Program-made: the position numbers and the translations under genes
In this document: piece by piece, positions 4,690 through 18,367 of the stretch
Layout of the letters: every line of letters starts with the position of its first letter
Position numbering within the stretch: position 1 is the first letter of the stretch
The notes under the pieces: generated by a model
Seen by the model: the letters and a program-made list of their open reading frames with translations, nothing else
Database searches by the model: none
Told to the model about the DNA's origin: nothing
NCBI GenBank assembly: GCA_903928015.1
Contig: CAIYPF010000043.1
Coordinates: 1-64,000 of the forward strand
Origin: an uncultured Gammaproteobacteria bacterium
Lineage (GTDB): Bacteria > Pseudomonadota > Gammaproteobacteria > Pseudomonadales > UBA5518
Direction: 5' to 3'
DNA length: 64,000 nucleotides

Positions 4690-4717
4690 TTGGCAGTGGC
4701 CAGCAAGCAACTATGCT
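4690..4717 (+). promoter_or_regulatory. Candidate sigma-70 promoter for the left-hand gspD
   Basis: TTGGCA at 4690-4695 and TATGCT at 4712-4717 are spaced by 16 bases, directly ahead of the secretin gene at 4739. Five and four of six bases match the consensus hexamers. This is pattern matching only. Confidence 0.3.
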
Positions 4718-4738: not shown

Positions 4739-6688
4739 ATGGTATCGATATTGCTTTGCCATGAGGCCCGTGACAAGGAATCGCCGTCCCCGGTGTCATA
4801 TCAGCCAGCCGTTACGCCACCCTGCCCCCGCAGTCGCCGCCCCCTCGCGGCGGCGCTGCTGGGCTGCGCCTTTGCGCTTGGGGCCATGGCTGAGGATCCG
4901 GCGCGCATCACGCTGAACATGCGCAATGCCGACATCGGTTCTGTGCTGGAGTGGCTGGCCGAGACCAGCGGTAAGCGCGTGGTCGTGGATCCCAGGGTCC
5001 GCGGCACTGTCACGATCCTGGCCCGCGATCCGCTCACCGCCGACGAAGCAACTCGCGTCGTGCTGGCCTCGCTCGCCGTGTACGGCTACACCGCGATCGA
5101 TCAGGGTGACATCCTCGAGGTTGTCCCCGCAGCAAATGTTCGATCGGGTGCCACCCGGTTTCTCGAGTCACTTCGTGAACCCGCAGCTGATCTGCCGGTG
5201 AACGAAGTCGTGCGCCTGGGTTTCGTGCCCGCGGAACAGATGGCTGCAACGCTGAAACCCATGATGCCGCCGCAAGCCGGTATCGTCGCATTGCCCGGGC
5301 AGAATGCCCTGCTCATCACAGATGTGGCGAGCGGTGTCAAACGGATCGTCAGCATCGTCAGGGAGCTCGACAACAGCGGCTCACTCGAATTCGATGCGGT
5401 CCAGCTGCAGCACGCTACGGCTGCAGACATGCTCAAAGTGCTTCAGGGCCTGCTGGGAAAGACCGGAAGCGAAGGGCTTCAACTGGTTGCCGACGAACGC
5501 TCCAACGCTGTCCTGATGGCCGGCTCCCCGGAGATCCGGGCAAAGGCGCGCGAGCTTCTGTCACGGCTGGATCAACCGCAGGTCGCAGAGGGCAGCATAA
5601 AGGTCGTGTACCTGCATTACCTCAAGGCCTCCGAGATGGTGCCTGTGCTCAAGGGAATTCTGGAGCAAAAAGACAAAGGCGACCCTGCCGCAAGGCAGTC
5701 GCGGATGTCCATCGAGGCAAGCGAGTCCACCAATGCGCTCGTGATCAATGCACCACCCGACCGTATGGAAGACCTCATGGAGGTGGTGCGCAAACTCGAC
5801 ATCCGCCGCGCCCAGGTGCTCGTCGAGGCGATCATCGCCGAGGTCGATGCAAAGCTCGTGCGGGATCTCGGCGTGGAATGGAAGACTTCTTTCAACGGCG
5901 ATGGCACCCAGGCAATCAGCAGGTTTCCAGGGGGACAGCTTCAGGCGGCTGATTCAGTGCTTGAACAAGTCGGCTCCGGTCTCACGCTCGGGTATTTCCA
6001 TAACGGCTCGCTGAGGGCGGTGCTTCAGGCGCTGGACACTACGGGCAACTCCAACATTCTCTCGACGCCGTCGATCGTCACCTTGGATAACCAGGAGGCC
6101 GAGATACTCGTTGGCTCCAATGTTCCCTTCAAGACCGGCGAGGCAACCAGCGCCGGCGCTCCCGTCGAGAATCCATTCACCACCATTGAGCGTCAGGACA
6201 TCGGCGTCACACTGAAGGTGAAACCGCAAGTAAACCAGGGCGATGCGATCACGCTCGACATCCAGCAAACCATCGAGACACTTACCGACGCCACGACGGC
6301 ACAGGACATCGTGACCGACAAGCGGAGCGTCCACACATCGGTAATGCTCGGTGATGATGACATTCTCGTGCTCGGGGGCCTGATGCAGGACGAGCATCGG
6401 AAGTCCGAGCGGAAGGTACCGATCCTCGGTGACATCCCCTTTCTGGGCGCACTGTTTCGCAGCACCAGCGATACAGTCGAGAAGAAAAACCTGATGGTTT
6501 TCGTACGCACGAGGATCCTGGGAGACTTCGCAACATCCGAACAGGAAACCCGCGACCGCTACGACAGAGTAAGAGAGTTGCAGCAGTCTCCGACCGCCGG
6601 CGTCGGGGCGAGTTCCAAAGCCCTTGAATCCTCGCCCTCACTTCCCCCGCTACCTCAGGCCACGTCGGGCAGCGAGGCGCCTCAGTAG
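4739..6688 (+). CDS. gspD: Type II secretion secretin GspD, first copy
   Basis: A secretin of up to 649 residues that forms the outer-membrane channel of the T2SS. An N0 domain starts after the signal region at 'ITLNMRNADIGSVLEWL'. N1, N2 and N3 modules follow, then the secretin core with 'LVEAIIAEV', 'GLTLGYFHNGSL', 'NILSTPSIVTLDN', 'VPFKTGEATS' and the closing 'VPILGDIPFLGALF'. A Ser/Pro-rich tail ends the protein. The start is uncertain: ATG 4739 gives a long, unusual leader, while an in-frame GTG at 4793 gives a shorter, more conventional signal peptide ending in 'ALGAMA'. It is convergent with, and overlaps by 7 bases, the gspB gene. A second gspD lies at 16418-18367. Confidence 0.9.
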   Translation: MVSILLCHEARDKESPSPVSYQPAVTPPCPRSRRPLAAALLGCAFALGAMAEDPARITLNMRNADIGSVLEWLAETSGKRVVVDPRVRGTVTILARDPLTADEATRVVLASLAVYGYTAIDQGDILEVVPAANVRSGATRFLESLREPAADLPVNEVVRLGFVPAEQMAATLKPMMPPQAGIVALPGQNALLITDVASGVKRIVSIVRELDNSGSLEFDAVQLQHATAADMLKVLQGLLGKTGSEGLQLVADERSNAVLMAGSPEIRAKARELLSRLDQPQVAEGSIKVVYLHYLKASEMVPVLKGILEQKDKGDPAARQSRMSIEASESTNALVINAPPDRMEDLMEVVRKLDIRRAQVLVEAIIAEVDAKLVRDLGVEWKTSFNGDGTQAISRFPGGQLQAADSVLEQVGSGLTLGYFHNGSLRAVLQALDTTGNSNILSTPSIVTLDNQEAEILVGSNVPFKTGEATSAGAPVENPFTTIERQDIGVTLKVKPQVNQGDAITLDIQQTIETLTDATTAQDIVTDKRSVHTSVMLGDDDILVLGGLMQDEHRKSERKVPILGDIPFLGALFRSTSDTVEKKNLMVFVRTRILGDFATSEQETRDRYDRVRELQQSPTAGVGASSKALESSPSLPPLPQATSGSEAPQ

Positions 6689-7305
6689 GGCTGCGGGTTC
6701 GCCAGGTGCACCAGTTGGCCCTGGAACTCCAGAATGATCCCGTCTGGAACTATCTCTTCGAGACGCAGGTCCTCGCCGAGAGGCTGGCCTTCACGCGCGC
6801 GAAGTCCGTTGATGATTACAGCTCGCTTGGCCGGATCGTTGGAGTGGACATGGAAACTCACATCCAGCCCCTGCAGGTATTTCTGCTCGGCATCCGTGAG
6901 TTGCCATACCTCCAGCAAGCCCTCTCGAGAGCCCGCCCCCGCTTCGGCAGAGCTCCCGGCTTGATCGTTTGCCGCGGTGGCAACCGGGGCCGAAGATGCG
7001 GGCGGCGCGACGGGACCCGCGGCGGGTGATTGAGCGCTGGGCACTTCGATTCGAGGTGTGGTGACGGGCATTGGCGGCGCAGTTGCAACTGCAGCCCTGA
7101 GCTCCGCCTCACTCGCAGAACGCGCGATCCAGGCCCCGGCCGCAGCTGCGGCGAGCACAAGCACGATCATGCCCAACACAACCATGGCCCGGCCTGATCG
7201 ACGTGGCCGGGCACGAAACCCGGGGACCTCGTGTACGGGTACGGATTGCGACTCACGAGGCCTTTCGCGATCGGATTTCTTCAATGCGTCGAGAATGTAT
7301 GACAC
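6682..7305 (-). CDS. gspB: Type II secretion protein GspB (ExeB-like)
   Basis: A 207-residue inner-membrane protein. It starts with the family signature 'SYILDALKKSDRER' at a GTG (7305), one base after the gspA stop; this decides the start, since the upstream extension does not match. One membrane segment (about residues 40-60) leads into a Pro/Ala-rich periplasmic linker. A C-terminal domain holds 'VSFHVHSNDPAKRAVIINGLRAREG', typical of GspB. With GspA it helps insert or localise the secretin across the peptidoglycan. It is the last gene of the minus-strand gsp operon. Confidence 0.88.
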   Translation of the reverse strand: MSYILDALKKSDRERPRESQSVPVHEVPGFRARPRRSGRAMVVLGMIVLVLAAAAAGAWIARSASEAELRAAVATAPPMPVTTPRIEVPSAQSPAAGPVAPPASSAPVATAANDQAGSSAEAGAGSREGLLEVWQLTDAEQKYLQGLDVSFHVHSNDPAKRAVIINGLRAREGQPLGEDLRLEEIVPDGIILEFQGQLVHLANPQPY

Positions 7306-7306
7306 G

Positions 7307-8161
7307 TCAGCGCCCCCGGATGAGACGAAGAAAACGACGCCATCCACGATCCGGTTGCGGCAACACCTCGGTGATTGCGCGGCGCAGATGGCGGCGTGAG
7401 AGCGAGCGAGCGCTTTCCGCGTAAACGCCCAAGAGCACGCGATCACACAGCACGTTGATCAACCTCGGCACACCGCCGCTCGCCCTGTGTATCTTTCGCA
7501 GCGACCAGTCCGGGAAGATCTCGTCATATACCCCGGCGACGGCCAACCGGTGGTGCACGTAGCCTCTGCTTTCGGCAAGGCTCAGAGGGCCGAGGTGATA
7601 ACGGGCGGTGATCCGCTGTGCGAACTGACGCAGCTCCGGGAGCGAGAGCTTGACGTTCAATTCGGGCTGCCCGATCAATACAAGCTGCAGGAGCTTGGTC
7701 TCATCTGTCTCGAGATTCGTGAGCAGCCGGATCTGTTCCATCGTCTCGACCGGCAGGTTCTGTGCCTCGTCAATCAGGACAACCGTGCGAAAACCGCGCG
7801 CGTGTGTATCGATGAGGTGAGCAAGGAGTCGGTCGGTCTGCTTGCGGATGTTTGCGGGATCATCCGCGGAGGGCAGGCGCAATTCATCACAGATGGACGC
7901 AACCAGATCAGTGGGAGACTGCATCGGGTTGATGATGAAAGCGACCTCTGTGCCTTCAGGGAGCTGCTGCAGCAGACACCGGCAGACCGTCGTCTTGCCG
8001 GTCCCCACTTCTCCGGTGAGCAACACGAAACCACCGCTGGCGCTGACGCCGTAAAGGAGGTGGGCGAGCGCTTCCCGGTGCTGGTTGCTCAGATAGAGAT
8101 AGTGCGGGTCAGGAGCGATCGAGAAAGGCAACGCCCGCAAACCGAAGTACTGCTGGTACAT
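7307..8161 (-). CDS. gspA: Type II secretion ATPase GspA (ExeA-like)
   Basis: A 284-residue AAA-type ATPase beginning with the family opening 'MYQQYFGLRALPFSIAPDP'. Walker A is GEVGTGKTT near residues 49-57; Walker B is 'VVLIDEAQNL'. It is shorter than Aeromonas ExeA, which has an added transmembrane segment and a peptidoglycan-binding domain; here the protein ends after the AAA part ('FLRLIRGR'). The C-terminal periplasmic region is therefore absent or supplied by GspB. The GspAB complex is linked in Aeromonas and Vibrio to secretin assembly. It sits between gspM and gspB. Confidence 0.88.
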   Translation of the reverse strand: MYQQYFGLRALPFSIAPDPHYLYLSNQHREALAHLLYGVSASGGFVLLTGEVGTGKTTVCRCLLQQLPEGTEVAFIINPMQSPTDLVASICDELRLPSADDPANIRKQTDRLLAHLIDTHARGFRTVVLIDEAQNLPVETMEQIRLLTNLETDETKLLQLVLIGQPELNVKLSLPELRQFAQRITARYHLGPLSLAESRGYVHHRLAVAGVYDEIFPDWSLRKIHRASGGVPRLINVLCDRVLLGVYAESARSLSRRHLRRAITEVLPQPDRGWRRFLRLIRGR

Positions 8162-8168
8162 AGGCTCC

Positions 8169-8720
8169 TCAGCCGCGCAGGGTGATGCGCACGCTCACCT
8201 TCCCGGGTTCATCCTGCCGCTCTATGGTGAACTCCGAAGCGCGAATACCGTGCGACCCTTCGAGTACAAAAAGCCATTTCACCAAGGCGTTGAAACTCAC
8301 CGCCTCCATCCACAACCGCACCCCGTCGTCTCCCGCAGGCTCATATCGACGGATGGACAAGCCTTCCTGATCCGCTGTGGAGTTGACCACCGTCGCAAGC
8401 GGTTCGTCCCTGGCTGAACTCGCCGGGGCGCCGCTTCCGGCCTCGGCTTCGTGGGACTGCAGCCACGCAAGCAGACTGCGCTCACCCTCGAGACGGCGCG
8501 CGGCAGATTCGACATGCGCCACAAGCGGGGCGATGGTCAGGAAATACAGAACGACCGCGCTACCGAACCAGCCGAGCATGCGCAGCGCTAGACGATCGCG
8601 CTCACCGAGTTGTTCGTACAAGGCAAGCAGTCTCTGCCCGGGATCGGAGGCCATCACTTTGCTGGCCAGATCCTCCGCCTGCCGACGCATCTGGGCCCGG
8701 AATTCATGGATGTCGGCCAT
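8169..8720 (-). CDS. gspM: Type II secretion inner-membrane protein GspM
   Basis: A 183-residue bitopic protein: a short cytoplasmic N-terminus, one membrane helix (about residues 50-70, 'MLGWFGSAVVLYFLTIAPLV'), a coiled-coil stretch ('ESAARRLEGERSLLAWLQ') and a small ferredoxin-like periplasmic domain. It joins GspL, GspC and GspF in the inner-membrane platform. Its ATG directly abuts the gspL stop (TGA then ATG), indicating coupled translation. Confidence 0.85.
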   Translation of the reverse strand: MADIHEFRAQMRRQAEDLASKVMASDPGQRLLALYEQLGERDRLALRMLGWFGSAVVLYFLTIAPLVAHVESAARRLEGERSLLAWLQSHEAEAGSGAPASSARDEPLATVVNSTADQEGLSIRRYEPAGDDGVRLWMEAVSFNALVKWLFVLEGSHGIRASEFTIERQDEPGKVSVRITLRG

Positions 8721-9992
8721 TCAATCGCTCCTCAATTCGAGGCGGGCGCTGGCGACGCCATTTTCCTCGCTGGCAGACAGTACACGTGCGCTTGCGCCCT
8801 GCCCACCAAGTACCTGCCCGAGTTTGTCGAGGCGGGCCATGTCGGGGGAACTGACCTCCGCGCCAAGACTCCCCGTCGTCGCATCGAAGCGCAGGCTCTT
8901 CACCACAACTCCCGCAAGTTCGGGGGTCGCCATGGCCGCTGCGAGCGTTGCCAGAGCGCGCACTCCCGCGCCACCGCGGGAGGTGCCTGCCGCGAGACGA
9001 CGCTCTGCCTGGCGTCGGAGATTCACGATCTTGTGTTCGTCGGGGAACATGCGCCTGAACTGCTTGACCGAGTCGTCATACGTGTCCCGCGCCTTCGCAT
9101 CAAGGTTCCACGCAACGCCGAGGCTCACCGCGGCAAACAGCGCAAAACCGGCGGCAGCGGCTGACCAGGCCATTCCCCAGTCTTGTGCCGAATCGCCGCG
9201 GCCCGAGGAGGGACGGTAGCCGCCTTGGCAGAGATTCAGCACGGGGTCTCCTCCCCGCGCCTGATGCGCCAGAAGTTCGACCAGCGTCTCGCTGTAGTTG
9301 GTACGACGAACCGGCAATTGCAGGCTCTGCTCGACCTCCGAGGCAAGCAGGTCTGCCCGGGCAATATCTTCCGGGCTCGCGGCGCAGGCACTTATCTCTA
9401 TGCGCGAGCAGGGCATGGCACGCTGCTTCAGGGCCAGCCCGAGCATCAGCGCGACATTTTCATTTTCGACAACGATGCCGCGCGAGATTCCGAGTTTGAT
9501 ATGGGACCGGGACCAGTGGACGTGGACAAATATCGAGCCCGGTTCTCGCGGCAAGAGAAGATGCTCGGGAATCATTGAAACCGGTGACAGGCCGGCAGAA
9601 TGGAGCACCTCCAACCACGCAATCATCTGGGCGTGCGCCACGATGCCGACGGGCACACTGTCACCGAAACGCTGCGCCGATATGGCGAGATGCGTCTGTC
9701 GAAGATCCCCGGCGACATGATCTTCGATCATGTAGGGAAGCGCCTTGCGCAAATGAGCGCTCTGACGCGACGGGATGTTGACTTCAGCAAGGTTTACCGC
9801 ACTGCCCGGCACGAAGACGACAACTTCTGCGCGCTCCGCAGCGTGCCCCGCCTGCACACGGACCCGCCCCAGCGGCCCCTGCCCCTGATTGATCAGTTTG
9901 TTCGCAGGGTCCATCAAAGCCCATGCCACGACGGTGTTCTCGTCGGGCAATTTGTGCTCAAGATGTACTGCCAGCCAGTTCTTCCCGGCCAT
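8721..9992 (-). CDS. gspL: Type II secretion inner-membrane protein GspL
   Basis: A 423-residue protein with the actin-like cytoplasmic domain of GspL ('LPYMIEDHVAGDLRQTHLAI' region). A single membrane helix lies near residues 270-290 ('AAAAGFALFAAVSLGVAWNL'), followed by a periplasmic ferredoxin-like domain. GspL anchors the GspE ATPase to the membrane. It follows gspK by 8 bases and is followed without a gap by gspM. Confidence 0.88.
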   Translation of the reverse strand: MAGKNWLAVHLEHKLPDENTVVAWALMDPANKLINQGQGPLGRVRVQAGHAAERAEVVVFVPGSAVNLAEVNIPSRQSAHLRKALPYMIEDHVAGDLRQTHLAISAQRFGDSVPVGIVAHAQMIAWLEVLHSAGLSPVSMIPEHLLLPREPGSIFVHVHWSRSHIKLGISRGIVVENENVALMLGLALKQRAMPCSRIEISACAASPEDIARADLLASEVEQSLQLPVRRTNYSETLVELLAHQARGGDPVLNLCQGGYRPSSGRGDSAQDWGMAWSAAAAGFALFAAVSLGVAWNLDAKARDTYDDSVKQFRRMFPDEHKIVNLRRQAERRLAAGTSRGGAGVRALATLAAAMATPELAGVVVKSLRFDATTGSLGAEVSSPDMARLDKLGQVLGGQGASARVLSASEENGVASARLELRSD

Positions 9993-10000
9993 GGTTGTCC

Positions 10001-10957
10001 CTATATGCCTGTGGCGTCACTGCGCCCGAGAATTATCGTGTTGCCCTTGCGGGGATCGCGCATCACTCTTGTCTCGAATCTCGCGTGGCGCCCCCGGTAC
10101 TCCGCGTGGACCACCATCGCAAAGTAACTGCTGCGCACACCCATCAAAGGAACTGCAGTACCGAAAAGCGTCGCCACACGGGGATCTGCGGCGTCACGAA
10201 ACGGTTGCCCCTGACGAAGCTGCACAAAGCGTTCCATTTCCGAGGGGGTCGCCTTTTCCGCGTAGGCGAGCAGGACTTCGGGTGGTGCTGTGTTGAGATT
10301 CAGTAGCGTGCCCGTCGGCAAAGCGCTCACCAGTGGTGCCAGGCGTTTCCAGCCATCGGCGTCCATGCCGGGCATAGCCCGCAGTTCTGAAGGATCCACC
10401 ATCGCTTTGTTCGGCAGGAATCGCAGCCCGTAAGCGTTGGCCTCGGATCCGCCGCGGTCCGTAGAGCCGTCGGTATCCACCCAGTCCGAAGCGGCCTGCG
10501 CCACGCGCGGATCAATATCAAGTTGGCGCAAAAGTCGGCCGAAACGGGCGTTTTCCGCCGGGAGCGCCTTGCCGTTGCGGTCCACCAGCCCGTTGACATT
10601 GAAGCGACCTGCAAGATCGCTGATGCGAACATCGATAGTGGCATCGTTTTCGGCGTCCTCGAAGTTGAGCTGCCCGGAGGCCCAGCTCTCCTGGAGGGTG
10701 TCAGTACCCTCCCCGCCCACGCTCGACTTGAGGTCGTTGAAGAGCAACTGGCGCCCGAGTTCCTCGGCGCCGAGTGCGTAGTAGCGTGCCTGGGTCGACT
10801 CGATGACGTTGCCCGTTCTTTTCAGTGCCAGGTAGCTGGTTCGCAGCATCTGCGTCGCAAGAAGCGTCGCGATGACAAACACCAGCAAGACGGTGATAAG
10901 CGCAACGCCACCCTGGCGACGAGGAAGAGAAAGCGCGTCAGCGCAGCGGAATGACAC
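10001..10957 (-). CDS. gspK: Type II secretion minor pseudopilin GspK
   Basis: A 318-residue protein with a prepilin-like N-terminus: basic leader, 'RRQGGVALITVLLVFVIATLLA' with cleavage after the second Gly. As usual for GspK, position +5 is not Glu (the mature protein starts V-A-L-I-T), which suits its place at the tip of the pseudopilus. A large globular C-terminal domain with a helix-hairpin region follows. The likely start is a GTG at 10957, overlapping gspJ by 20 bases. Confidence 0.9.
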   Translation of the reverse strand: MSFRCADALSLPRRQGGVALITVLLVFVIATLLATQMLRTSYLALKRTGNVIESTQARYYALGAEELGRQLLFNDLKSSVGGEGTDTLQESWASGQLNFEDAENDATIDVRISDLAGRFNVNGLVDRNGKALPAENARFGRLLRQLDIDPRVAQAASDWVDTDGSTDRGGSEANAYGLRFLPNKAMVDPSELRAMPGMDADGWKRLAPLVSALPTGTLLNLNTAPPEVLLAYAEKATPSEMERFVQLRQGQPFRDAADPRVATLFGTAVPLMGVRSSYFAMVVHAEYRGRHARFETRVMRDPRKGNTIILGRSDATGI

Positions 10958-11579
10958 GGCTCAACTCTCCGATACGCAGTTGGGACAGCCGCACCTCGAC
11001 CGCTATGGGAACTGGCTCAATCGCAGCAGTTCCAGCGGGCGCGGTGGCGCCGCTGCTCTGGGGGCGTGCCTCCACTGCAGACTCCGGCGGCCACTCCTCA
11101 AACCACTTTCCTTTTTCATCCAGATAGCGGATCTCGAAAGACTCAACCTGCGAGACATAGATTCGCTCGACCTGCTCCTCAGGGTCGTTGTCGTCGATGG
11201 AGCGCCGATAGCGACGCAGCAGACGCCCCTCGTCATCAAGTGCCCAGGCAACGCGTTGCAAACCGGAGCGCGGCATGCCCTCAGGGTTCCGCCAACCCGA
11301 TCGCGTGAACTCGACGACGGCATCCTCCGGCGCTGCATCGAGCGCAGGACTGTCGTCACTACCGCCGCCAATCGCCCTCGGCGCGAACTGGGAGAAGTCC
11401 TCGTCAAGTTGACGAAGAGCAAGCTGTACACCGGCAAGCGCCTCATAGCCTGCGTCCCCGCTCTCTTTCAGTCGGCCTGTGGACGCGAGGAGCGTGTACG
11501 CAGCCACACCGATGAAGGAGAAAATCGCCATTGCCACCAACGCCTCGAGGAGCGTGAATCCACGCTGGCAACCCTTCAT
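10938..11579 (-). CDS. gspJ: Type II secretion minor pseudopilin GspJ
   Basis: A 213-residue pseudopilin: leader MKGCQRG then FTLLEALVAMAIFSFIG, with the conserved Glu at +5. The globular part contains the 'ALAGVQLALRQLDEDFSQF' motif characteristic of GspJ. It forms the tip complex with GspI and GspK. Its start overlaps the gspI stop by 4 bases (ATGA). Confidence 0.92.
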   Translation of the reverse strand: MKGCQRGFTLLEALVAMAIFSFIGVAAYTLLASTGRLKESGDAGYEALAGVQLALRQLDEDFSQFAPRAIGGGSDDSPALDAAPEDAVVEFTRSGWRNPEGMPRSGLQRVAWALDDEGRLLRRYRRSIDDNDPEEQVERIYVSQVESFEIRYLDEKGKWFEEWPPESAVEARPQSSGATAPAGTAAIEPVPIAVEVRLSQLRIGELSRVIPLR

Positions 11580-11956
11580 CGAACATCCGCCCTGAAGCCC
11601 GTCAGGGTCAGAACCGGGTCATCCTCTCCCTCACGTGCGACGCTGACTTCAAGTCGCGCAAAACCGGGCCGAGGCGTGGCCTGGGACTTCAGGCTCACGA
11701 TCCATGTTCGTCCGCCCATCTCGACCTGAACCGGTTTGCTTGCGGAAGGAGGACGTTCCGCCACCCTGCTCTCGTCAAGCGCGTTCTGCGCGACCCAGAG
11801 AGCAATGCTTTTGTCCTCGAGGCGGAAGAGCTGGGAAGAATAGGTGCCACTCTGCGAGACAAGAGTGCTGGCGAGCACGGCAAGAATCGCCAGAGCAACG
11901 AGGACCTCGATCAAGGTGAAGCCGCGGGCTGGATCAGAGATCCTGAAGCGTGCCAC
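11576..11956 (-). CDS. gspI: Type II secretion minor pseudopilin GspI
   Basis: A 126-residue pseudopilin when started at GTG 11956: short leader ending in 'DPARG', then FTLIEVLVALAILAVLAST with Glu +5. The open frame extends upstream to 12124, but GspI proteins are about 125 residues with a short leader, so the GTG is preferred. It overlaps the end of gspH by 23 bases. GspI starts assembly of the pseudopilus tip. Confidence 0.85.
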   Translation of the reverse strand: MARFRISDPARGFTLIEVLVALAILAVLASTLVSQSGTYSSQLFRLEDKSIALWVAQNALDESRVAERPPSASKPVQVEMGGRTWIVSLKSQATPRPGFARLEVSVAREGEDDPVLTLTGFRADVR

Positions 11957-12455
11957 TGCCGTCGCTCCCGAGACTCGCCACAGGGTCGTTGCTGTCAGCA
12001 AGACGGATATCAAGCCTGAAACCGCTGATCTCGCCACTGGAGGAAACAAGGACGTCCGGTTGCAGCTCGGCGTCATCGGAACGTGAGCGGGCTCGGTTGG
12101 GGGCATCCGGGAGGCTGAGCTCAAGGCTCAAACCAGCCGGCAGCGCATGCCTCTCCAGAGGTTTTTCGGTGATCTCTGCCCACGTCATGGCTTCGGGATC
12201 GAAGCGCAGTACACGGTATGCAATTTCGTCGTCGACAATGAACCCGAGTTCCTCACCCTGCATCGTAGCCTCGTCACGCGCAAAGGCGAGAAGCTCGCGG
12301 ATGCGAGCCATCTCGTCACGCGCTCCACGCTGCGCGTTGCCTCCAGCCGACACGGTGGCCAGCCCTGCAAGCAAGGCCATGATGACCAGCGTCACCAGCA
12401 TCTCTACGAGGGTGAACCCCCCGACGTGATCACTCGCCCGAGGTGATGTCGGCAT
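11934..12455 (-). CDS. gspH: Type II secretion minor pseudopilin GspH
   Basis: A 173-residue pseudopilin: leader 'MPTSPRASDHVGG' then FTLVEMLVTLVIMALLAGL with Glu +5. The mature domain has 'ELLAFARDEATMQGEELGFIV', typical of GspH. It overlaps gspG by 26 bases. It is a minor component linking the tip complex to the GspG fibre. Confidence 0.88.
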   Translation of the reverse strand: MPTSPRASDHVGGFTLVEMLVTLVIMALLAGLATVSAGGNAQRGARDEMARIRELLAFARDEATMQGEELGFIVDDEIAYRVLRFDPEAMTWAEITEKPLERHALPAGLSLELSLPDAPNRARSRSDDAELQPDVLVSSSGEISGFRLDIRLADSNDPVASLGSDGSGTLQDL

Positions 12456-12864
12456 CGTAACTCTCGCCGCCTTCGCGGCCGTCCGCGCCGAGGCTCACGA
12501 TGTCGAAGCGACCGTCGGGATAACGCACGTACTGGTAGTCATTGGCCCAGGGATCTTTCGGCAGGGTCTTCTTCTTCATGTATCCCGAAGGATTCCAGTT
12601 GCGCGGTTCGGGTGTTCCGCCGGGCTTCTCGACAAGCGCCTGCAGGCCCTGCTCGGTTGTGGGGTAACTGCCATTGTCGATCCGGTACATCTCCAGAGCC
12701 TGCGACATGGTTGCGATATCGGCCTTTCCTGCGGTTACTTTCGCCTGGTCGACGCGCCCCATGATGTTCGGTGCCACGAGACCGATCAGCACGCTGATGA
12801 TCACGACGACGACCATGATCTCGATGAGCGTGAAGCCACGACTGCGCTGGATTCGGGATTCCAC
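12430..12864 (-). CDS. gspG: Type II secretion major pseudopilin GspG
   Basis: A 144-residue protein: leader up to 'QRSRG', mature start FTLIEIMVVVVIISVLIGLV with Glu +5. The conserved GspG core follows ('YRIDNGSYPTTEQGLQALV', 'KDPWANDYQYVRYPDGRFDIVSLGADG'), including the Ca-binding Asp-rich C-terminus. GTG 12864 is chosen because AGAGG lies about 8 bases upstream; GTG 12873 and an upstream ATG at 12933 are alternatives. It builds the pseudopilus shaft. Confidence 0.92.
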   Translation of the reverse strand: MESRIQRSRGFTLIEIMVVVVIISVLIGLVAPNIMGRVDQAKVTAGKADIATMSQALEMYRIDNGSYPTTEQGLQALVEKPGGTPEPRNWNPSGYMKKKTLPKDPWANDYQYVRYPDGRFDIVSLGADGREGGESYDADITSGE

Positions 12865-12875
12865 GATTGGCACCT

Positions 12876-14093
12876 CTATTTGATCAACTGGTTGAGGGAG
12901 AAGATGGGCTGCAGGATCGCAACGACGATGCATAGTACCGCCACTCCCATGAAGAGCAGAACAGCGGGCTCCAGCAACCCGAGCATCGTGGCGATCCTGT
13001 TATCAAGCTCCGATTGCTGGCTCTCGGCGACGCGCGCAAGCATGCGCTCGAGTTCGCCGCTCTGCTCACCGCTGGCGATCATGTAGATCATCATGGGCGG
13101 GAACTTGCCGCTGCGTTCCAGTGCGGCTTTCAGGCTGCTGCCCTCTCGCACCTGCCCCGCGGCCTCCCCGACCACACGTTTGAGCGAGGTGTTGGTGAGA
13201 ACCGCTGCCGCGATATCGAGAGCGTCCACCAGCGGCACGCCGCTCGAGACAAGCGTGCTCAAGGTGCCCGCAAACCTTGCGCTGTTTGCTGCAAGACTCA
13301 TCCGGCCGGCGAGCGGTAGCCGCAACAAAACAGCGTCCGCCGACTCGCGTCGCCCCTCGTCCCGCAGCAAGGCACGGAACGCGAAGACCGCAAGCACGAT
13401 CCCGGCAAGCGCCCAGACTCCCCAGTGCACGAGGAAGTCACTCGCGTCGAGCATGGCCTGTGTGAGGGGCGGCAGCGCTTGCCCCTGGTCGGCGAATACC
13501 TTCACGACGTCGGGAACGATGTAGGTCAGAAGCCCCGTCACCACCAGCACTGCAAGCCCGAGCAGGACGCTCGGATAGATCAGCGCGAGCTGGACCTTCT
13601 GCCGTGATTTGTGGCTCGCCTCGGTGTAGTCCGCAAGTCGGGAGAGCACGAGATCAAGGCGGCCCGTATGCTCTCCGGCCGCAACGGTCGCGCAGTACAT
13701 CGACGGGAATGCACGGGGATATTGACCCATCGCCGCGGCAAGTGAACGGCCCTCGAGCACCTGGGATCGCAAACTGGAGACCAGCGCTTTTGTCTCGGAG
13801 CGCTCGCTTTGCTGGGCAATGGCCATCAGGGCGTCGGCTATAGGTAGCGCGGACTGCAGCAATGTCGCCAGCTGGCGGGTGAACAACGCGACATCCGAAA
13901 CCGGGAGCGATGCGCGCGATGCAACAGCCTTCTCGCGGCCTCGTCGGTTGTCGGCGTTGACCGCGGCAACGTCAAGGGGAACCAGTCCACGATCACGCAA
14001 CATCTGCCGCGCATGGCGCGGGTTGTCGGCTTCGAGAGTGCCCTTGCGCTGCTTGCCACCGGCGTCGAGCACCGCATAACTGAAAACTGCCAC
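12876..14093 (-). CDS. gspF: Type II secretion platform protein GspF
   Basis: A 405-residue polytopic inner-membrane protein with two copies of the GspF domain, each beginning with a 'FTRQLATLLQSALPIADAL' or 'FAGTLSTLVSSGVPLVDAL' type segment. Three membrane helices are visible (about residues 175-195, 225-245 and 375-400). The start is GTG 14093, four bases after the gspE stop. It couples the GspE motor to pseudopilus growth. Confidence 0.93.
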   Translation of the reverse strand: MAVFSYAVLDAGGKQRKGTLEADNPRHARQMLRDRGLVPLDVAAVNADNRRGREKAVASRASLPVSDVALFTRQLATLLQSALPIADALMAIAQQSERSETKALVSSLRSQVLEGRSLAAAMGQYPRAFPSMYCATVAAGEHTGRLDLVLSRLADYTEASHKSRQKVQLALIYPSVLLGLAVLVVTGLLTYIVPDVVKVFADQGQALPPLTQAMLDASDFLVHWGVWALAGIVLAVFAFRALLRDEGRRESADAVLLRLPLAGRMSLAANSARFAGTLSTLVSSGVPLVDALDIAAAVLTNTSLKRVVGEAAGQVREGSSLKAALERSGKFPPMMIYMIASGEQSGELERMLARVAESQQSELDNRIATMLGLLEPAVLLFMGVAVLCIVVAILQPIFSLNQLIK

Positions 14094-14097
14094 CCGA

Positions 14098-15576
14098 TCA
14101 GTCCTCCCGCGTCACGCGCAGGACTTCTTCAACCGTCGTCCTTCCGCTCAGAACCTTCGCCCGGCCGTCGGCACGCAGTGATTGCTGGCTCTTGCGCGCC
14201 TGGGCAACGATGTCCTCTTCGGGTGCTCGCTTGTGGATCAACGAGCGAATGGTGTCGTCAACCACCAGAACCTCGTAAAGCCCCATACGCCCCCTGTAGC
14301 CGCGGTCATTGCAGGCCGAGCAGCCCTTGGGGCGGAACAGCAGATGCTCCTCCGGGCGGCGGATCTGCAACAACTCCATTTCTGCCGCGTCCGGTACGTG
14401 GGGTTGCTTGCACTCGTTACAGAGCAGCCGAACCAGACGCTGCGCGATGATCCCGTTGATGCTCGAGGCAAGAAGAAAGGGCTCGATCCCCATGTCCTCG
14501 AGGCGGGTGACTGCGCCAGCAGCGGTGTTTGTATGCAGAGTGGACAGCACAAGGTGTCCCGTAAGGCTCGCTTGCACCGCTATTCCTGCAGTCTCGGCAT
14601 CGCGTATCTCGCCCACCATCACGATATCCGGATCCTGACGGAGCATGGCTCGCAATCCCGACGCGAAAGTCATGCCTGCCTTGACGTTCACCTGGGTCTG
14701 CCCGAGACCCTCGATGTTGTATTCGATGGGGTCCTCGACGGTGAGTATGTTGCTGCTGCCATCGTTCAGGTGATTGAGGCAGCCGTAGAGGGTGGTGCTC
14801 TTTCCGGAACCCGTCGGCCCGGTGACAAGGATGATGCCGTGAGGGCGTTCCAGGAGCCCCTTGAGTCCGCTCAATGCCGCGGGGTTGAAGCCGAGTCGAT
14901 CGAGGTCGAGACGCGCCTGGTTTTTCTCGAGGATACGCATGACGACGCGTTCGCCGTTCGCAGACGGAAGGGTGGAAACCCGCAGGTCGATTTCGCGCCC
15001 GCCGACGCGGATGGATATCCGCCCGTCCTGAGGCACTCGTTTTTCGGCGATATCGAGCCGGGACATCACCTTGATGCGCGATATGAGCAACGGAGCAAGC
15101 TCGCGACGCGGTTCGAGCACCGACCGAAGCATTCCGTCCACCCTGAAGCGGACCACCAGGCGCTTTTCATAGGGTTCGACGTGTATGTCGGATGCCCCTT
15201 CCCTGATGGCCTGGGCGAGTATCGCGTTTATGAGCAGGATGATCGGCGAATCTTCCTTCTCTTCCAGAAGGTCGGTGTCCGTCTCGTGCACATTCTCGAG
15301 AAGGCTGTTGATATCGACGTTCTCGGCCAGGCCGGCTGCCATGCGTTGCGCGGCGCCGCTCTTCTGCTCATAGGTGTCGGATAACGCGCGGTCGAAATCC
15401 TCATCACTCAGAGGCTCGCAGGTGAATGCTACCCCCGTAAGGCGCTGGATCTCGGCTACGGCCTGTACCGGAACATTGGCCCGGTGCAACAACCGTGGCT
15501 TGTCCGCAGAACCCTCGTCCGGCATGCGCAGCAGCGCGCCATGACGTTTCGCATATGCATAGGGAATCGTTTGCAT
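14098..15576 (-). CDS. gspE: Type II secretion ATPase GspE
   Basis: A 492-residue hexameric ATPase. It has an N-terminal GspL-binding part, Walker A GPTGSGKST (about residues 252-260), an Asp box, Walker B-like 'MVGEIRD', a His box ('TGHLVLSTLHTN'), and a zinc-binding CxxC pair ('CNEC' near 385 and 'CSAC' near 420). All catalytic elements are intact. It is first in the eleven-gene operon E-F-G-H-I-J-K-L-M-A-B and is divergent from gspC. Confidence 0.95.
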   Translation of the reverse strand: MQTIPYAYAKRHGALLRMPDEGSADKPRLLHRANVPVQAVAEIQRLTGVAFTCEPLSDEDFDRALSDTYEQKSGAAQRMAAGLAENVDINSLLENVHETDTDLLEEKEDSPIILLINAILAQAIREGASDIHVEPYEKRLVVRFRVDGMLRSVLEPRRELAPLLISRIKVMSRLDIAEKRVPQDGRISIRVGGREIDLRVSTLPSANGERVVMRILEKNQARLDLDRLGFNPAALSGLKGLLERPHGIILVTGPTGSGKSTTLYGCLNHLNDGSSNILTVEDPIEYNIEGLGQTQVNVKAGMTFASGLRAMLRQDPDIVMVGEIRDAETAGIAVQASLTGHLVLSTLHTNTAAGAVTRLEDMGIEPFLLASSINGIIAQRLVRLLCNECKQPHVPDAAEMELLQIRRPEEHLLFRPKGCSACNDRGYRGRMGLYEVLVVDDTIRSLIHKRAPEEDIVAQARKSQQSLRADGRAKVLSGRTTVEEVLRVTRED

Positions 15577-15624
15577 GAGGAGACCGGCCTCTTTATTGCG
15601 TCTCTACTGTAGCACCGGGCATCA

Positions 15625-15640
15625 CCCGTATCGTCACGGG
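15625..15640. repeat. Inverted repeat in the gspE leader
   Basis: CCCGT and ACGGG are separated by six bases, about 50 bases upstream of the gspE ATG. It could be an operator or a small hairpin in the leader. With 5-base arms it could also be chance. Confidence 0.25.
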
Positions 15641-15680
15641 ACTTCCCCATCGGATCGGAGACAGAAAACCGCCGCTGGCT

Positions 15681-15691
15681 TGCAATTTGCA
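15681..15691. promoter_or_regulatory. Palindrome in the gspE/gspC divergent promoter region
   Basis: TGCAATTTGCA is a perfect odd-centred palindrome near the middle of the 191-base spacer between the divergent gspE and gspC starts. The symmetry and position fit an operator for a dimeric regulator; no protein can be named. Confidence 0.3.
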
Positions 15692-15708
15692 CAAGTCATG
15701 CCCGGCGA

Positions 15709-15735
15709 CGGCTTTTCGCCACTGTGCGAAAGCCG
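15709..15735 (+). promoter_or_regulatory. Strong hairpin in the gspC leader
   Basis: CGGCTTTTCGC (15709-15719) pairs with GCGAAAGCCG (15726-15735) around the loop CACTGT, giving a stem of ten pairs with one bulged T. It lies 32 bases upstream of the gspC ATG. No U-run follows, so it does not look like a simple terminator. Confidence 0.4.
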
Positions 15736-15767
15736 GAAGCGTTGATTCATGGACGGAGTCCACGGAG

Positions 15768-16421
15768 ATGCAGGCATCGATGCGTGAATTCTTGGAGGAC
15801 AGGCTGAACATCACGGCGCCCAATGCGCTCACGGCTGTTGTCGCCGTTCTTGCGCTGTCGGCCTCTGGATGGCAGGCCCTGCGCTGGTACGGCTCGGTCG
15901 ATGCGAGCCTGCCGCTTGACGCCCACCCACCCGTGGTGGCCGCAGCGGCACCGGACCCCCTGCCCGTGATCCTCAGCGCCAACGTCTTCGGCGCAGCAGC
16001 AAGCGCTGTCGCCGACTCTACGTCCGCCACTCCTGTCGCCCGCGAATCAACGGGATTCATCCTGCGCGCCGCCTTCGCCGAGGCAGATGGCGGAGGTGGC
16101 GCAATCATCGAGAACAGCTCAGGTCAGGCCGACTGGTACGCCGTTGGCCAAAGCGTGGCGCCGGGCCTGACACTCCGTGAGGTACGCCCTGACCACGTGG
16201 TCCTCGATCGCGGGGGAAGTCCCGAGCGCCTCCAGTTCGAACGCCTGGCTGAGGTCGCCATGAACCCGAGTCCTTCCCCGTCCGATCAGGCGGGAGGCAC
16301 ACCGACTTTCACGGTGGAGCCAGGACAACCGCAGCCGATACCCCGCGATATGGCACCCGAAGACAAGGCCAACCTCATCCGTCAGCGTCTTGAAGAGCTC
16401 CGCAACCGGACACGCAAATGA
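15768..16421 (+). CDS. gspC: Type II secretion inner-membrane protein GspC
   Basis: A 217-residue bitopic protein: short cytoplasmic N-terminus, one membrane segment (about residues 17-35, 'ALTAVVAVLALSASGWQAL'), a linker, and the homology-region domain ('FILRAAFAEADGGGGAIIENSSGQADWYAVGQSVAPGLTLREV'). No PDZ domain follows; the C-terminus is a Pro-rich stretch and a charged helix. ATG 15768 has CGGAG just upstream; an in-frame ATG at 15780 is an alternative. GspC links the platform to GspD, and its last bases overlap the gspD start (ATGA). Confidence 0.9.
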   Translation: MQASMREFLEDRLNITAPNALTAVVAVLALSASGWQALRWYGSVDASLPLDAHPPVVAAAAPDPLPVILSANVFGAAASAVADSTSATPVARESTGFILRAAFAEADGGGGAIIENSSGQADWYAVGQSVAPGLTLREVRPDHVVLDRGGSPERLQFERLAEVAMNPSPSPSDQAGGTPTFTVEPGQPQPIPRDMAPEDKANLIRQRLEELRNRTRK

Positions 16422-18367
16422 ACACCACAACCCGCACATTCATGTATCGCAGCCGGCAGCATCTCGCCGCGCTGGGGATCGTTCTTGCCGCCGCCTGCCA
16501 CACGGGCAACGCCCTGGCCGAGGCAGGCAAGCTGGTCCTCAACATGCGCGACGCCGATATCCGCTCCATGGTCCAGTGGGTCGCGGACGTCACCGGCAAG
16601 AACCTGATCGTCCACAAGGACGTCCAGGGCAAGGTCACGGTGCTGTCTGCGGAGCCGGTAACTCCGGAGCAGGCCTACCAGGTGTTCCTGTCTGCTCTTG
16701 AGGTCAATGGTTTCGCGGCCGTGGAATCCGGGGGGGCGATCAAGATCGTTCCCCAGGCGATGGCCAACTCGAGCAGCCCGCAGGTCTCTCACGGTGTAGG
16801 CGGTGAAACCGTCATTACGGTGATCCGCGCCAAGAACGTACCCGCGAGCCAGCTCGCAACGAACCTCCGGCCACTGGTCCCGCAGGCAGGCATGCTGACG
16901 GCCTATCCCGAGACCAACAGCCTGATCGTCGCATCCAGCGCAACCAATGTTCAGCGCATCAACGAGCTGGTGAAAATTCTCGATCAGGCAGGCAACCTGC
17001 AGTTCGAGACGATCCGCCTCCAGCACGCGAATGCCCAGGACGTGCAGAAGAACCTGGAACAACTCATACCCGCCATTCAGGGCAGCGAGGGTTACAAGTT
17101 CGTCAATCTGGCCGTCGATACACGGACCAACACCATTCTCATGGGCGGCGACCCGGCCAACCGGGGCCAAGTCAGGAACATCATCGCGAGTCTCGATCAG
17201 GAAGTGGCCGGAGGGAACACCGACGTCATTTACCTGAAGTACGTGCAAGCAGACGAGATGCTTGCAATCCTGAAAGGCGTTGCCGAAGCGCTGCAGGGCG
17301 ACGCAGGTCCGGCCGCAGGCGGTCAGCAGGGCGGAAGCGGAGGTGGCTCGAAGGTGAGCATCGAGGCGAGCAAGAGCACCAATGCACTCATCGTCAACGC
17401 GCCCCCCGCCATCGTCGCCAAGATGCGCTCCATCGTGGAGCAGGTGGATATCCGTCGCGCTCAGGTTCTGGTGGAAGCGCTGGTCGTCGAGGTCACCGAC
17501 GACGACGCGAAAGACCTCGGCATCTCGTGGATCGGCAGCGAACACAAAGGCTTTCCGTCGGAAGGCGGGAACATCGCCGTGAATACCCTGGGTGCAAACC
17601 TGAAGACCGGCGCCGGGCTTGATGCGAAGGGCAATGTCACCCTTGCGCCTGGCGGAGGTCTTACTCTGGGTTACATCGACAACGGCGATCTCAAGGCTGT
17701 GATGCGTGCACTTTCCACCACCACCAAGGCAAACATCCTGTCCACACCGACGATTGTCGCCCTGGACAACGAGGAAGCCGAGCTTCTGGTAGGGCAGAAC
17801 GTTCCATTCAAGACCGGACAGAGCACCAGTCAGGCCTCGTCCGTAGACAACCCGTTCACCACCATCGAGCGGCAGGACATCGGCATAAATCTGGTTATCA
17901 AGCCGCAGATCAACCAAGGGGACTCCATCACCCTTGACCTGAAGCAGAGCGCCGAAGACATAGCGCCGTCGAACACGTTGCAGGCCGAGACCTCCGACAT
18001 CGTCACGAACAAGCGCATGATCAAAACCAAGGCGCTGATCAAGGACATGCAGACGCTCGTCATCGGGGGCTTGCTGCAGGACAAGGAGAGCGAGCAACGC
18101 ACCAAGACCCCGATCCTCGGCGACATTCCGCTGATCGGCGGACTGTTCTCCAGCAAGGGCAAAACCCGGGGGAAGACGAACCTGATGGTGTTCATACGTC
18201 CGACGATCCTGAAGGACGACGCCCAGATCGCGGAACTGACCAAACAGCGTTATGAATTCATGCGCAGCGCGCAGGACACGGCGCTGAAACCCGAGCAGCC
18301 TTTCGCAAAGGAAAGCAGCCCCATCCTGCCGGAATTCGAGACCTTCTCGCCGGCCGGCAGTCGCTGA
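16418..18367 (+). CDS. gspD: Type II secretion secretin GspD, second copy
   Basis: A 649-residue secretin with a standard signal peptide (about residues 1-35). N0 ('LVLNMRDADIRSMVQWVAD'), N1, N2 and N3 domains follow; N3 carries a Gly/Ser-rich insertion near residues 295-310 (AGGQQGGSGGGS). The C-terminal channel domain has 'GLTLGYIDNGDLKAVMRAL', 'NILSTPTIVALDN', 'VPFKTGQSTS' and 'PILGDIPLIGGLF'. It is translationally coupled to gspC, so this copy is the canonical GspC partner. Block by block it is clearly related to the copy at 4739 but not a recent duplicate. The absence of a Gsp pilotin gene nearby fits a GspAB-dependent system. Confidence 0.95.
   Translation: MNTTTRTFMYRSRQHLAALGIVLAAACHTGNALAEAGKLVLNMRDADIRSMVQWVADVTGKNLIVHKDVQGKVTVLSAEPVTPEQAYQVFLSALEVNGFAAVESGGAIKIVPQAMANSSSPQVSHGVGGETVITVIRAKNVPASQLATNLRPLVPQAGMLTAYPETNSLIVASSATNVQRINELVKILDQAGNLQFETIRLQHANAQDVQKNLEQLIPAIQGSEGYKFVNLAVDTRTNTILMGGDPANRGQVRNIIASLDQEVAGGNTDVIYLKYVQADEMLAILKGVAEALQGDAGPAAGGQQGGSGGGSKVSIEASKSTNALIVNAPPAIVAKMRSIVEQVDIRRAQVLVEALVVEVTDDDAKDLGISWIGSEHKGFPSEGGNIAVNTLGANLKTGAGLDAKGNVTLAPGGGLTLGYIDNGDLKAVMRALSTTTKANILSTPTIVALDNEEAELLVGQNVPFKTGQSTSQASSVDNPFTTIERQDIGINLVIKPQINQGDSITLDLKQSAEDIAPSNTLQAETSDIVTNKRMIKTKALIKDMQTLVIGGLLQDKESEQRTKTPILGDIPLIGGLFSSKGKTRGKTNLMVFIRPTILKDDAQIAELTKQRYEFMRSAQDTALKPEQPFAKESSPILPEFETFSPAGSR

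What the first reader, a model, noticed from the sequence alone, without database searches (positions are those of the whole stretch)
4739..18367. Two different secretin genes flank one T2SS operon
gspD copies sit at both ends of the gsp locus. One is coupled to gspC, the other is alone and convergent with gspB. They share all domains but differ widely in sequence (for example FHNGSL versus IDNGDL after GLTLGY, and different tails), so this is an old duplication or separate acquisition. A second secretin could form a dedicated channel for other substrates, mix into hetero-oligomers, or depend specifically on GspAB.
Basis: partly seen in the sequence, partly recalled or inferred. Interest (0 to 1): 0.58.

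Follow-up and report, generated by a model that had tools for sequence, protein, structure and literature searches.

The report
Second secretin beside a T2SS operon
This bacterium's protein-secretion machine comes with two quite different versions of the outer-membrane channel protein instead of one, and related bacteria have kept both for a very long time, which suggests each does a separate job that has not been worked out.

Summary
A complete T2SS operon (gspA-M) is flanked by two intact gspD genes that are 43% identical; both pass the GspD equivalog cut-off. The pair is not local. The same map (D> <B<A<M...<E C> D>) occurs in four Pseudomonadales families, Dasania and Oceanicoccus among them; two further families carry both secretin types with the left-type gene unlinked. 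Left-type and right-type proteins form two clades with largely parallel branching, so the two types are older than these families. Of 30 genomes in which I found the right type, 26 also had the left type. Six genomes with exactly one GspC and one GspL still have two GspDs. The left copy is under strong purifying selection (dN/dS 0.06-0.11). Most likely it is an alternative secretin for the same inner-membrane platform, analogous to Pseudomonas XphA/XqhA but without its own GspC. A bolder reading, not excluded: it is specialised for GspB while the right copy serves GspC, which would resolve the reported GspB/GspC conflict over one N0 domain. Synteny does not prove that: the left-type gene is unlinked in two families, GspB is common without it, and my co-evolution test was inconclusive. 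New variant of a known kind.

The parts
4739..6688 (+). left gspD (second secretin, left type)
   Evidence: TIGR02517 477.7 bits, N0 + 3x Secretin_N + Secretin; single left clade in tree
6682..7446 (-). gspB ORF (likely coding start near 7305, at the SYILDALKK peptide); C-terminal HR domain, convergent with left gspD
   Evidence: PF16537 T2SSB 56.6 bits; start inferred from relatives such as the Dasania locus
7307..8161 (-). gspA, short form (284 aa), AAA ATPase domain only
   Evidence: PF13401; relatives in other families have 547-578 aa, one with PG_binding_1
8169..8720 (-). gspM
   Evidence: PF04612
8721..9992 (-). gspL
   Evidence: PF05134, PF12693
10001..10957 (-). gspK
   Evidence: PF21687, PF03934
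10938..11579 (-). gspJ
   Evidence: PF11612
11576..12124 (-). gspI
   Evidence: PF02501
11934..12455 (-). gspH (by position, methylation motif and similarity to relatives)
   Evidence: PF07963 only; BLAST to relatives
12430..12933 (-). gspG
   Evidence: PF08334
12876..14093 (-). gspF
   Evidence: PF00482
14098..15576 (-). gspE
   Evidence: TIGR02533 683.5 bits, above cut-off
15687..16421 (+). gspC, single copy in the locus, with HR domain
   Evidence: PF11356 58.3 bits; weak T2SSB match in the HR region
16418..18367 (+). right gspD (secretin coupled to gspC, right type)
   Evidence: TIGR02517 533.8 bits; single right clade

Best explanation
The locus encodes one T2SS inner-membrane platform, one GspC and one GspAB pair, but two anciently diverged secretins. 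Shown: both are full-length GspDs; the two types are older than six families; they are co-retained; the left type brings no extra GspC or GspL; it is under purifying selection. Inferred: the left protein assembles its own ring and serves as an alternative outer-membrane channel for the same platform, used under different conditions or for different substrates, much as XphA/XqhA forms a hybrid with the Xcp system of Pseudomonas aeruginosa. Its separate transcription (own upstream region, far end of the operon, unlinked in two families) would let the cell change the ratio of the two channels.
For: Both pass the GspD equivalog model. Six genomes (G004, G005, G070, G057, G090, G117) have 1 GspC and 1 GspL over cut-off but 2 GspD over cut-off; among all 20 genomes counted, GspD = GspC + 1 in 19 and + 2 in one. 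Left type found in 26 of 30 genomes that have the right type, and never without it in those examined. Left and right subtrees branch largely in parallel. dN/dS of left 0.06-0.11 against 0.03-0.10 for right in five comparisons. The XphA/XqhA hybrid with Xcp is a precedent (passage of PMC6567927).
Against: No expression, assembly or secretion data. The left copy is less conserved in every domain beyond the signal peptide, and the left copies of f1, f4 and the Dasania genus lack the C-terminal [DE]Fxx[FY]xP-like tail seen in all 17 right copies (read by eye), so it could have drifted to a role outside T2SS. Four genomes have the right type with no left type found (G035 97% complete, G206 88%, G266 73%, G274 64%). 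An unrecognised platform elsewhere cannot be ruled out as its partner.
Confidence: 0.5

Rival explanations
1. Division of labour by HR domain. The left secretin is specialised to bind the HR domain of GspB (with GspA, for assembly and anchoring) and the right one to bind the HR domain of GspC (for secretion), either as two kinds of ring or as subunits of one mixed ring. This would remove the competition of GspB and GspC for one N0 domain.
For: GspB-HR and GspC-HR take equivalent places on GspD N0 and are described as spatially incompatible (PMC9239104, passages and sections 14, 15, 17). Here left gspD sits beside gspB and right gspD beside gspC in 4 families. At the N0 position matching OutD Y42, left and right differ in 17 of 17 genomes (mapping partly from recalled OutD letters). 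N0 residue 84 is D in 17 of 17 left and H in 17 of 17 right copies. No AspS or PulS pilotin in 11 of 11 genomes tested.
Against: Left gspD is unlinked from gspB in f12 and f31 and two unrelated genes separate them in Dasania. GspB is widespread without left-type GspD. The five mapped interface positions as a set do not differ more than other N0 positions (0.48 versus 0.54; 67% of random draws as high). Mirror-tree: GspB-HR correlates hardly better with left N0 (partial r 0.26) than with right N0 (0.20).
Confidence: 0.15
2. Mixed rings without HR specialisation: the two paralogs co-assemble into hetero-oligomeric rings, with left subunits tuning gating or assembly.
For: Secretin domains are on average 57% identical within a genome, the best conserved part. 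Co-retention in 26 of 30 genomes.
Against: No direct evidence; the bacterial pore is described as an oligomer of a single polypeptide (PMC10128026 passage). Separate transcription and faster evolution of the left copy do not suggest fixed stoichiometry.
Confidence: 0.13
3. The left secretin serves another export apparatus (a second pilus-like or T2SS-like platform) and its place beside the operon is historical.
For: Unlinked in f12 and f31. The window genome has another GspC-GspD pair on contig C191.
Against: Six genomes have a single GspC and single GspL. The left type is found only with the right type in the genomes examined. It scores below the cut-offs for PilQ (239.7 of 284.35 bits), SctC, MshL and PilN secretins.
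Confidence: 0.12
4. A relic duplicate with no present role.
For: Lower conservation than the right copy and loss of the tail motif in some lineages.
Against: Intact ORF in all 17 mapped left copies; dN/dS 0.06-0.11; retained since before six families split.
Confidence: 0.04

Closest known systems
XphA/XqhA (PaQa) with the Xcp T2SS of Pseudomonas aeruginosa
   Same: An extra secretin encoded outside the core operon that forms a functional hybrid with the resident system (passage of PMC6567927; the Michel 2007 paper itself not read).
   Different: XphA/XqhA is a GspC+GspD pair; here there is an extra GspD alone. The left type does not group with the GspC-GspD pairs lacking adjacent gspE-M from four Pseudomonas genomes; that these are XphA/XqhA is my reading of their map.
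P. aeruginosa Xcp operon layout (xcpPQ divergent from xcpR-Z; recalled)
   Same: gspCD divergent from gspE-M.
   Different: Here gspA and gspB are added at the far end, followed by a second gspD.
GspB/OutB scaffold of Dickeya dadantii (PMC9239104)
   Same: GspB with a single HR domain encoded with T2SS genes, here paired with GspA.
   Different: Dickeya OutD must bind both GspB and GspC; here there are two secretins.
Mitochondrial T2SS with GspD and GspDL (PMC10128026 passage)
   Same: Two secretin-type proteins in one system.
   Different: Eukaryotic, with the secretin split into separate proteins; not related in detail.

Membership tests
Type II secretion secretin GspD (TIGR02517) | Passes curated equivalog cut-off (351 bits) | tested here: met
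   Left 477.7, right 533.8 bits; all 17 mapped left copies over cut-off
Type II secretion secretin GspD (TIGR02517) | N0 domain, three Secretin_N repeats, Secretin domain | tested here: met
   predicted fold of the left copy best matches PulD, ETEC GspD, ExeD, EpsD, model pLDDT 71.5
Type II secretion secretin GspD (TIGR02517) | Forms an outer-membrane ring working with a T2SS platform | not testable with these tools
   Needs experiment
Complete T2SS operon | GspC-GspM core components present | tested here: met
   GspH supported only by position, methylation motif and relatives
XphA/XqhA-type alternative GspCD module | Extra secretin with its own GspC | tested here: not met
   GspD = GspC + 1 in 19 of 20 genomes and + 2 in one
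XphA/XqhA-type alternative GspCD module | Extra secretin works with the resident platform | not testable with these tools
   Needs deletion and secretome analysis
GspAB-dependent secretin | Always encoded with gspAB | tested here: inconclusive
   Near gspB in f1, f4, f29 and f47; unlinked in f12 and G073
Pilotin-dependent secretin | AspS (PF16549) or PulS (PF09691) pilotin in the genome | tested here: not met
   0 of 11 genomes each; other pilotins not tested
PilQ / SctC / MshL / PilN secretins | Passes those curated cut-offs | tested here: not met
   Left: PilQ 239.7 of 284.35, SctC 159.1 of 238.45, MshL 125 of 250.2, PilN 24.1 of 287.65 bits

The most novel reading that the evidence does not exclude
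A T2SS that has split the secretin's two periplasmic jobs between paralogs: a GspB-dedicated secretin (left) for assembly and anchoring and a GspC-dedicated secretin (right) for secretion, working as two ring types or one mixed ring, conserved since the ancestor of six Pseudomonadales families.
Probability: 0.14. Interest if true: 0.8.

Novelty: new variant of a known kind. Interest (0 to 1): 0.52.

Why it matters
Bacterial secretin rings are described as built from one polypeptide, and GspB and GspC are reported to claim the same N0 surface of that polypeptide. A lineage that has kept two GspDs around one platform is a natural experiment for asking how channel identity, GspB binding and GspC binding can be separated. 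Cultured carriers such as Dasania make deletion tests possible.

Tried and rejected
Relic or pseudogene: rejected on intact ORFs and dN/dS. Recent duplication: rejected, since left and right are separate clades over six families. Non-T2SS secretin: rejected by family cut-offs. Lipoprotein (self-piloting) left secretin: considered from a cysteine at the signal peptide end, but its context is not conserved in G003, G004 and G005, so dropped. Mirror-tree co-evolution of HR domains with N0 was inconclusive, and so was the interface-position test. Origin by duplication versus acquisition: unresolved (AU p 0.204). The promoter scan found one sigma-70-like site just upstream of left gspD (4690-4717), but fewer sites than shuffles give (1 versus 2.3), so no evidence. 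No Rfam family or tRNA gene in the window. No left type found outside the order: in 369 genomes drawn from the class, no genome apart from the window's own scored as high as its right copy. Literature: ten searches gave no description of two gspD genes on one T2SS operon; papers of subscription journals are mostly missing from that library. PMC6971210 (GspD1/GspD2 of Shewanella vesiculosa, passages) concerns two separate clusters.

Rows dropped: the tree left out 5 of 73 rows for size, and one search left out 14 of 73. The mirror-tree used 16 of 17 genomes, as G073 has no gspB mapped on its T2SS contigs. Not all 293 genomes were classified as left or right; the 30 counted are those of families f1, f4, f12, f29, f31 and f47 whose secretins I placed by tree, by best hit or, for the G214 left copy, by its place beside gspB. 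G234 (f47) and G002 (f1) were looked at and have neither type.

Full report
What is there. The window carries a T2SS locus from 4739 to 18367. From left to right: gspD (+), then on the minus strand gspB, A, M, L, K, J, I, H, G, F, E, then gspC and a second gspD (+). The two gspD products are 649 aa each, intact, 43% identical, with the same domains, and both exceed the GspD equivalog cut-off. Right gspD overlaps gspC by 4 bases; left gspD converges on gspB with a 7-base overlap.

It is not a local accident. The genome has seven Secretin-family matches. Three are over the GspD cut-off: the two here and one on contig C191 that has its own GspC. A search of 55 relatives and of 293 genomes of the order showed other genomes with two close matches about 12 kb apart. 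Fetched loci gave the full map D> <B<A<M<L<K<J<I<H<G<F<E C> D> on one contig in 14 genomes, the window's included: G000, G003, G004, G005, G008, G033, G070, G071, G102, G129, G153, G174, G194, G254. G001, G051 and G214 show the two halves on separate contigs. The named scan ties these to lake MAGs, Oceanicoccus, Dasania sp. GY-MA-18, HTCC2143 and Cellvibrionales MAGs, which I read as the order Pseudomonadales; linking handles to names rests on matching contig lengths.

Two ancient types. In trees of 28, 65, 68 and 59 rows all left copies form one clade (SH-aLRT 93-99) and all right copies another (98-100). In family f12 (G057, G090, G117) and in G073 (f31) the left type exists but lies elsewhere in the genome. 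In the three f12 genomes the T2SS operon has the same <B<A...<E C> D> layout; the G073 operon contig ends within gspA. The branching inside the two clades is largely parallel (f12 first; f29 with f47). Holding left and right together as one clade is not rejected (AU p = 0.204), so I cannot say whether the left type arose by duplication in this lineage or came from another GspD line.

Co-retention. In families f1, f4, f12, f29, f31 and f47 I found right-type GspD in 30 genomes and left type in 26 of them. The four without a left type are G035 (97% complete; its contig ends soon after gspB), G206 (88%), G266 (73%) and G274 (64%). No examined genome had the left type alone. In the genus of the window, 5 of 6 have both and the sixth (G002) has neither, with no GspL or GspB match. 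In 369 genomes drawn from the class no genome apart from the window's own scored as high as its right copy.

No second platform. Counting over family cut-offs in 20 genomes, GspD exceeds GspC by one in 19 and by two in G033. G004, G005, G070, G057, G090 and G117 have one GspC, one GspL and two GspDs. Known pilotin families AspS and PulS are absent from 11 of 11 genomes tested.

Selection and sequence. dN/dS of the left copy is 0.06-0.11 in five comparisons, the right copy 0.03-0.10, and gspB and gspC 0.08-0.29; two further comparisons were saturated. The left copy is less conserved than the right in every domain beyond the signal peptide (N0 0.53 versus 0.65 mean identity; secretin 0.62 versus 0.70). 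In N0, residue 84 is D in 17 of 17 left copies and H in 17 of 17 right copies. All 17 right copies end in a tail resembling [DE]Fxx[FY]xP (loosely in some, such as G008 and G070); 8 of 17 left copies have it, and those of f1, f4 and the Dasania genus do not (read by eye; the script's own stricter pattern counted 8 right and a looser one 3 left). An AlphaFold model of the left protein (pLDDT 71.5, pTM 0.43) is modest but matches T2SS secretins best.

How it may work. I favour an alternative channel for the same platform (0.5), by analogy with XphA/XqhA, described as a functional hybrid with Xcp (passage of PMC6567927). The most interesting rival builds on the GspB/OutB work (PMC9239104; abstract, passages and sections 14, 15 and 17 read). 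There GspB-HR and GspC-HR occupy equivalent positions on GspD N0 and are said to be spatially incompatible. Two secretins, one beside gspB and one beside gspC, would resolve this. My tests do not support it beyond synteny: GspB-HR tracks left N0 hardly better than right N0 (partial r 0.26 versus 0.20); the five mapped interface positions are not unusually divergent as a set; GspB occurs above cut-off in 105 of 293 genomes; and the left type is unlinked in two families.

Novelty. Ten literature searches found no report of two gspD genes around one T2SS operon. Extra or alternative GspDs are known in principle, so this is a new variant of a known kind.

Noticed in passing
window 7307-8161: GspA in this genus is short (284-286 aa, 373 in G003) and lacks the periplasmic part; relatives in f4, f29 and f31 have up to 547-578 aa, one with a recognised peptidoglycan-binding domain. 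f12 and several f47 members are also short (about 324-343 aa).
   Followed up: partly
L009 17196-19817 (contig C191): Another GspC-GspD pair in the same genome at a contig end; a relative (G003, L052) has further T2SS genes around its counterpart.
   Followed up: partly
L094, L114: Public records titled Klebsiella pneumoniae (CAMAXE010000001) and Verrucomicrobiaceae (JAQGNY010000042) carry this Pseudomonadales locus and look mislabelled.
   Followed up: no
L177 14565-16436: In Dasania a 2-hydroxyacid dehydrogenase-like gene and a UspA-like gene (names by eye) lie between gspB and left gspD, breaking the convergent pair.
   Followed up: partly
L098, L101-L103, L106, L107, L110, L112, L160: Pseudomonas genomes carry a gspC-gspD pair with no gspE-M found within the fetched flank, the layout expected of XphA/XqhA.
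   Followed up: no
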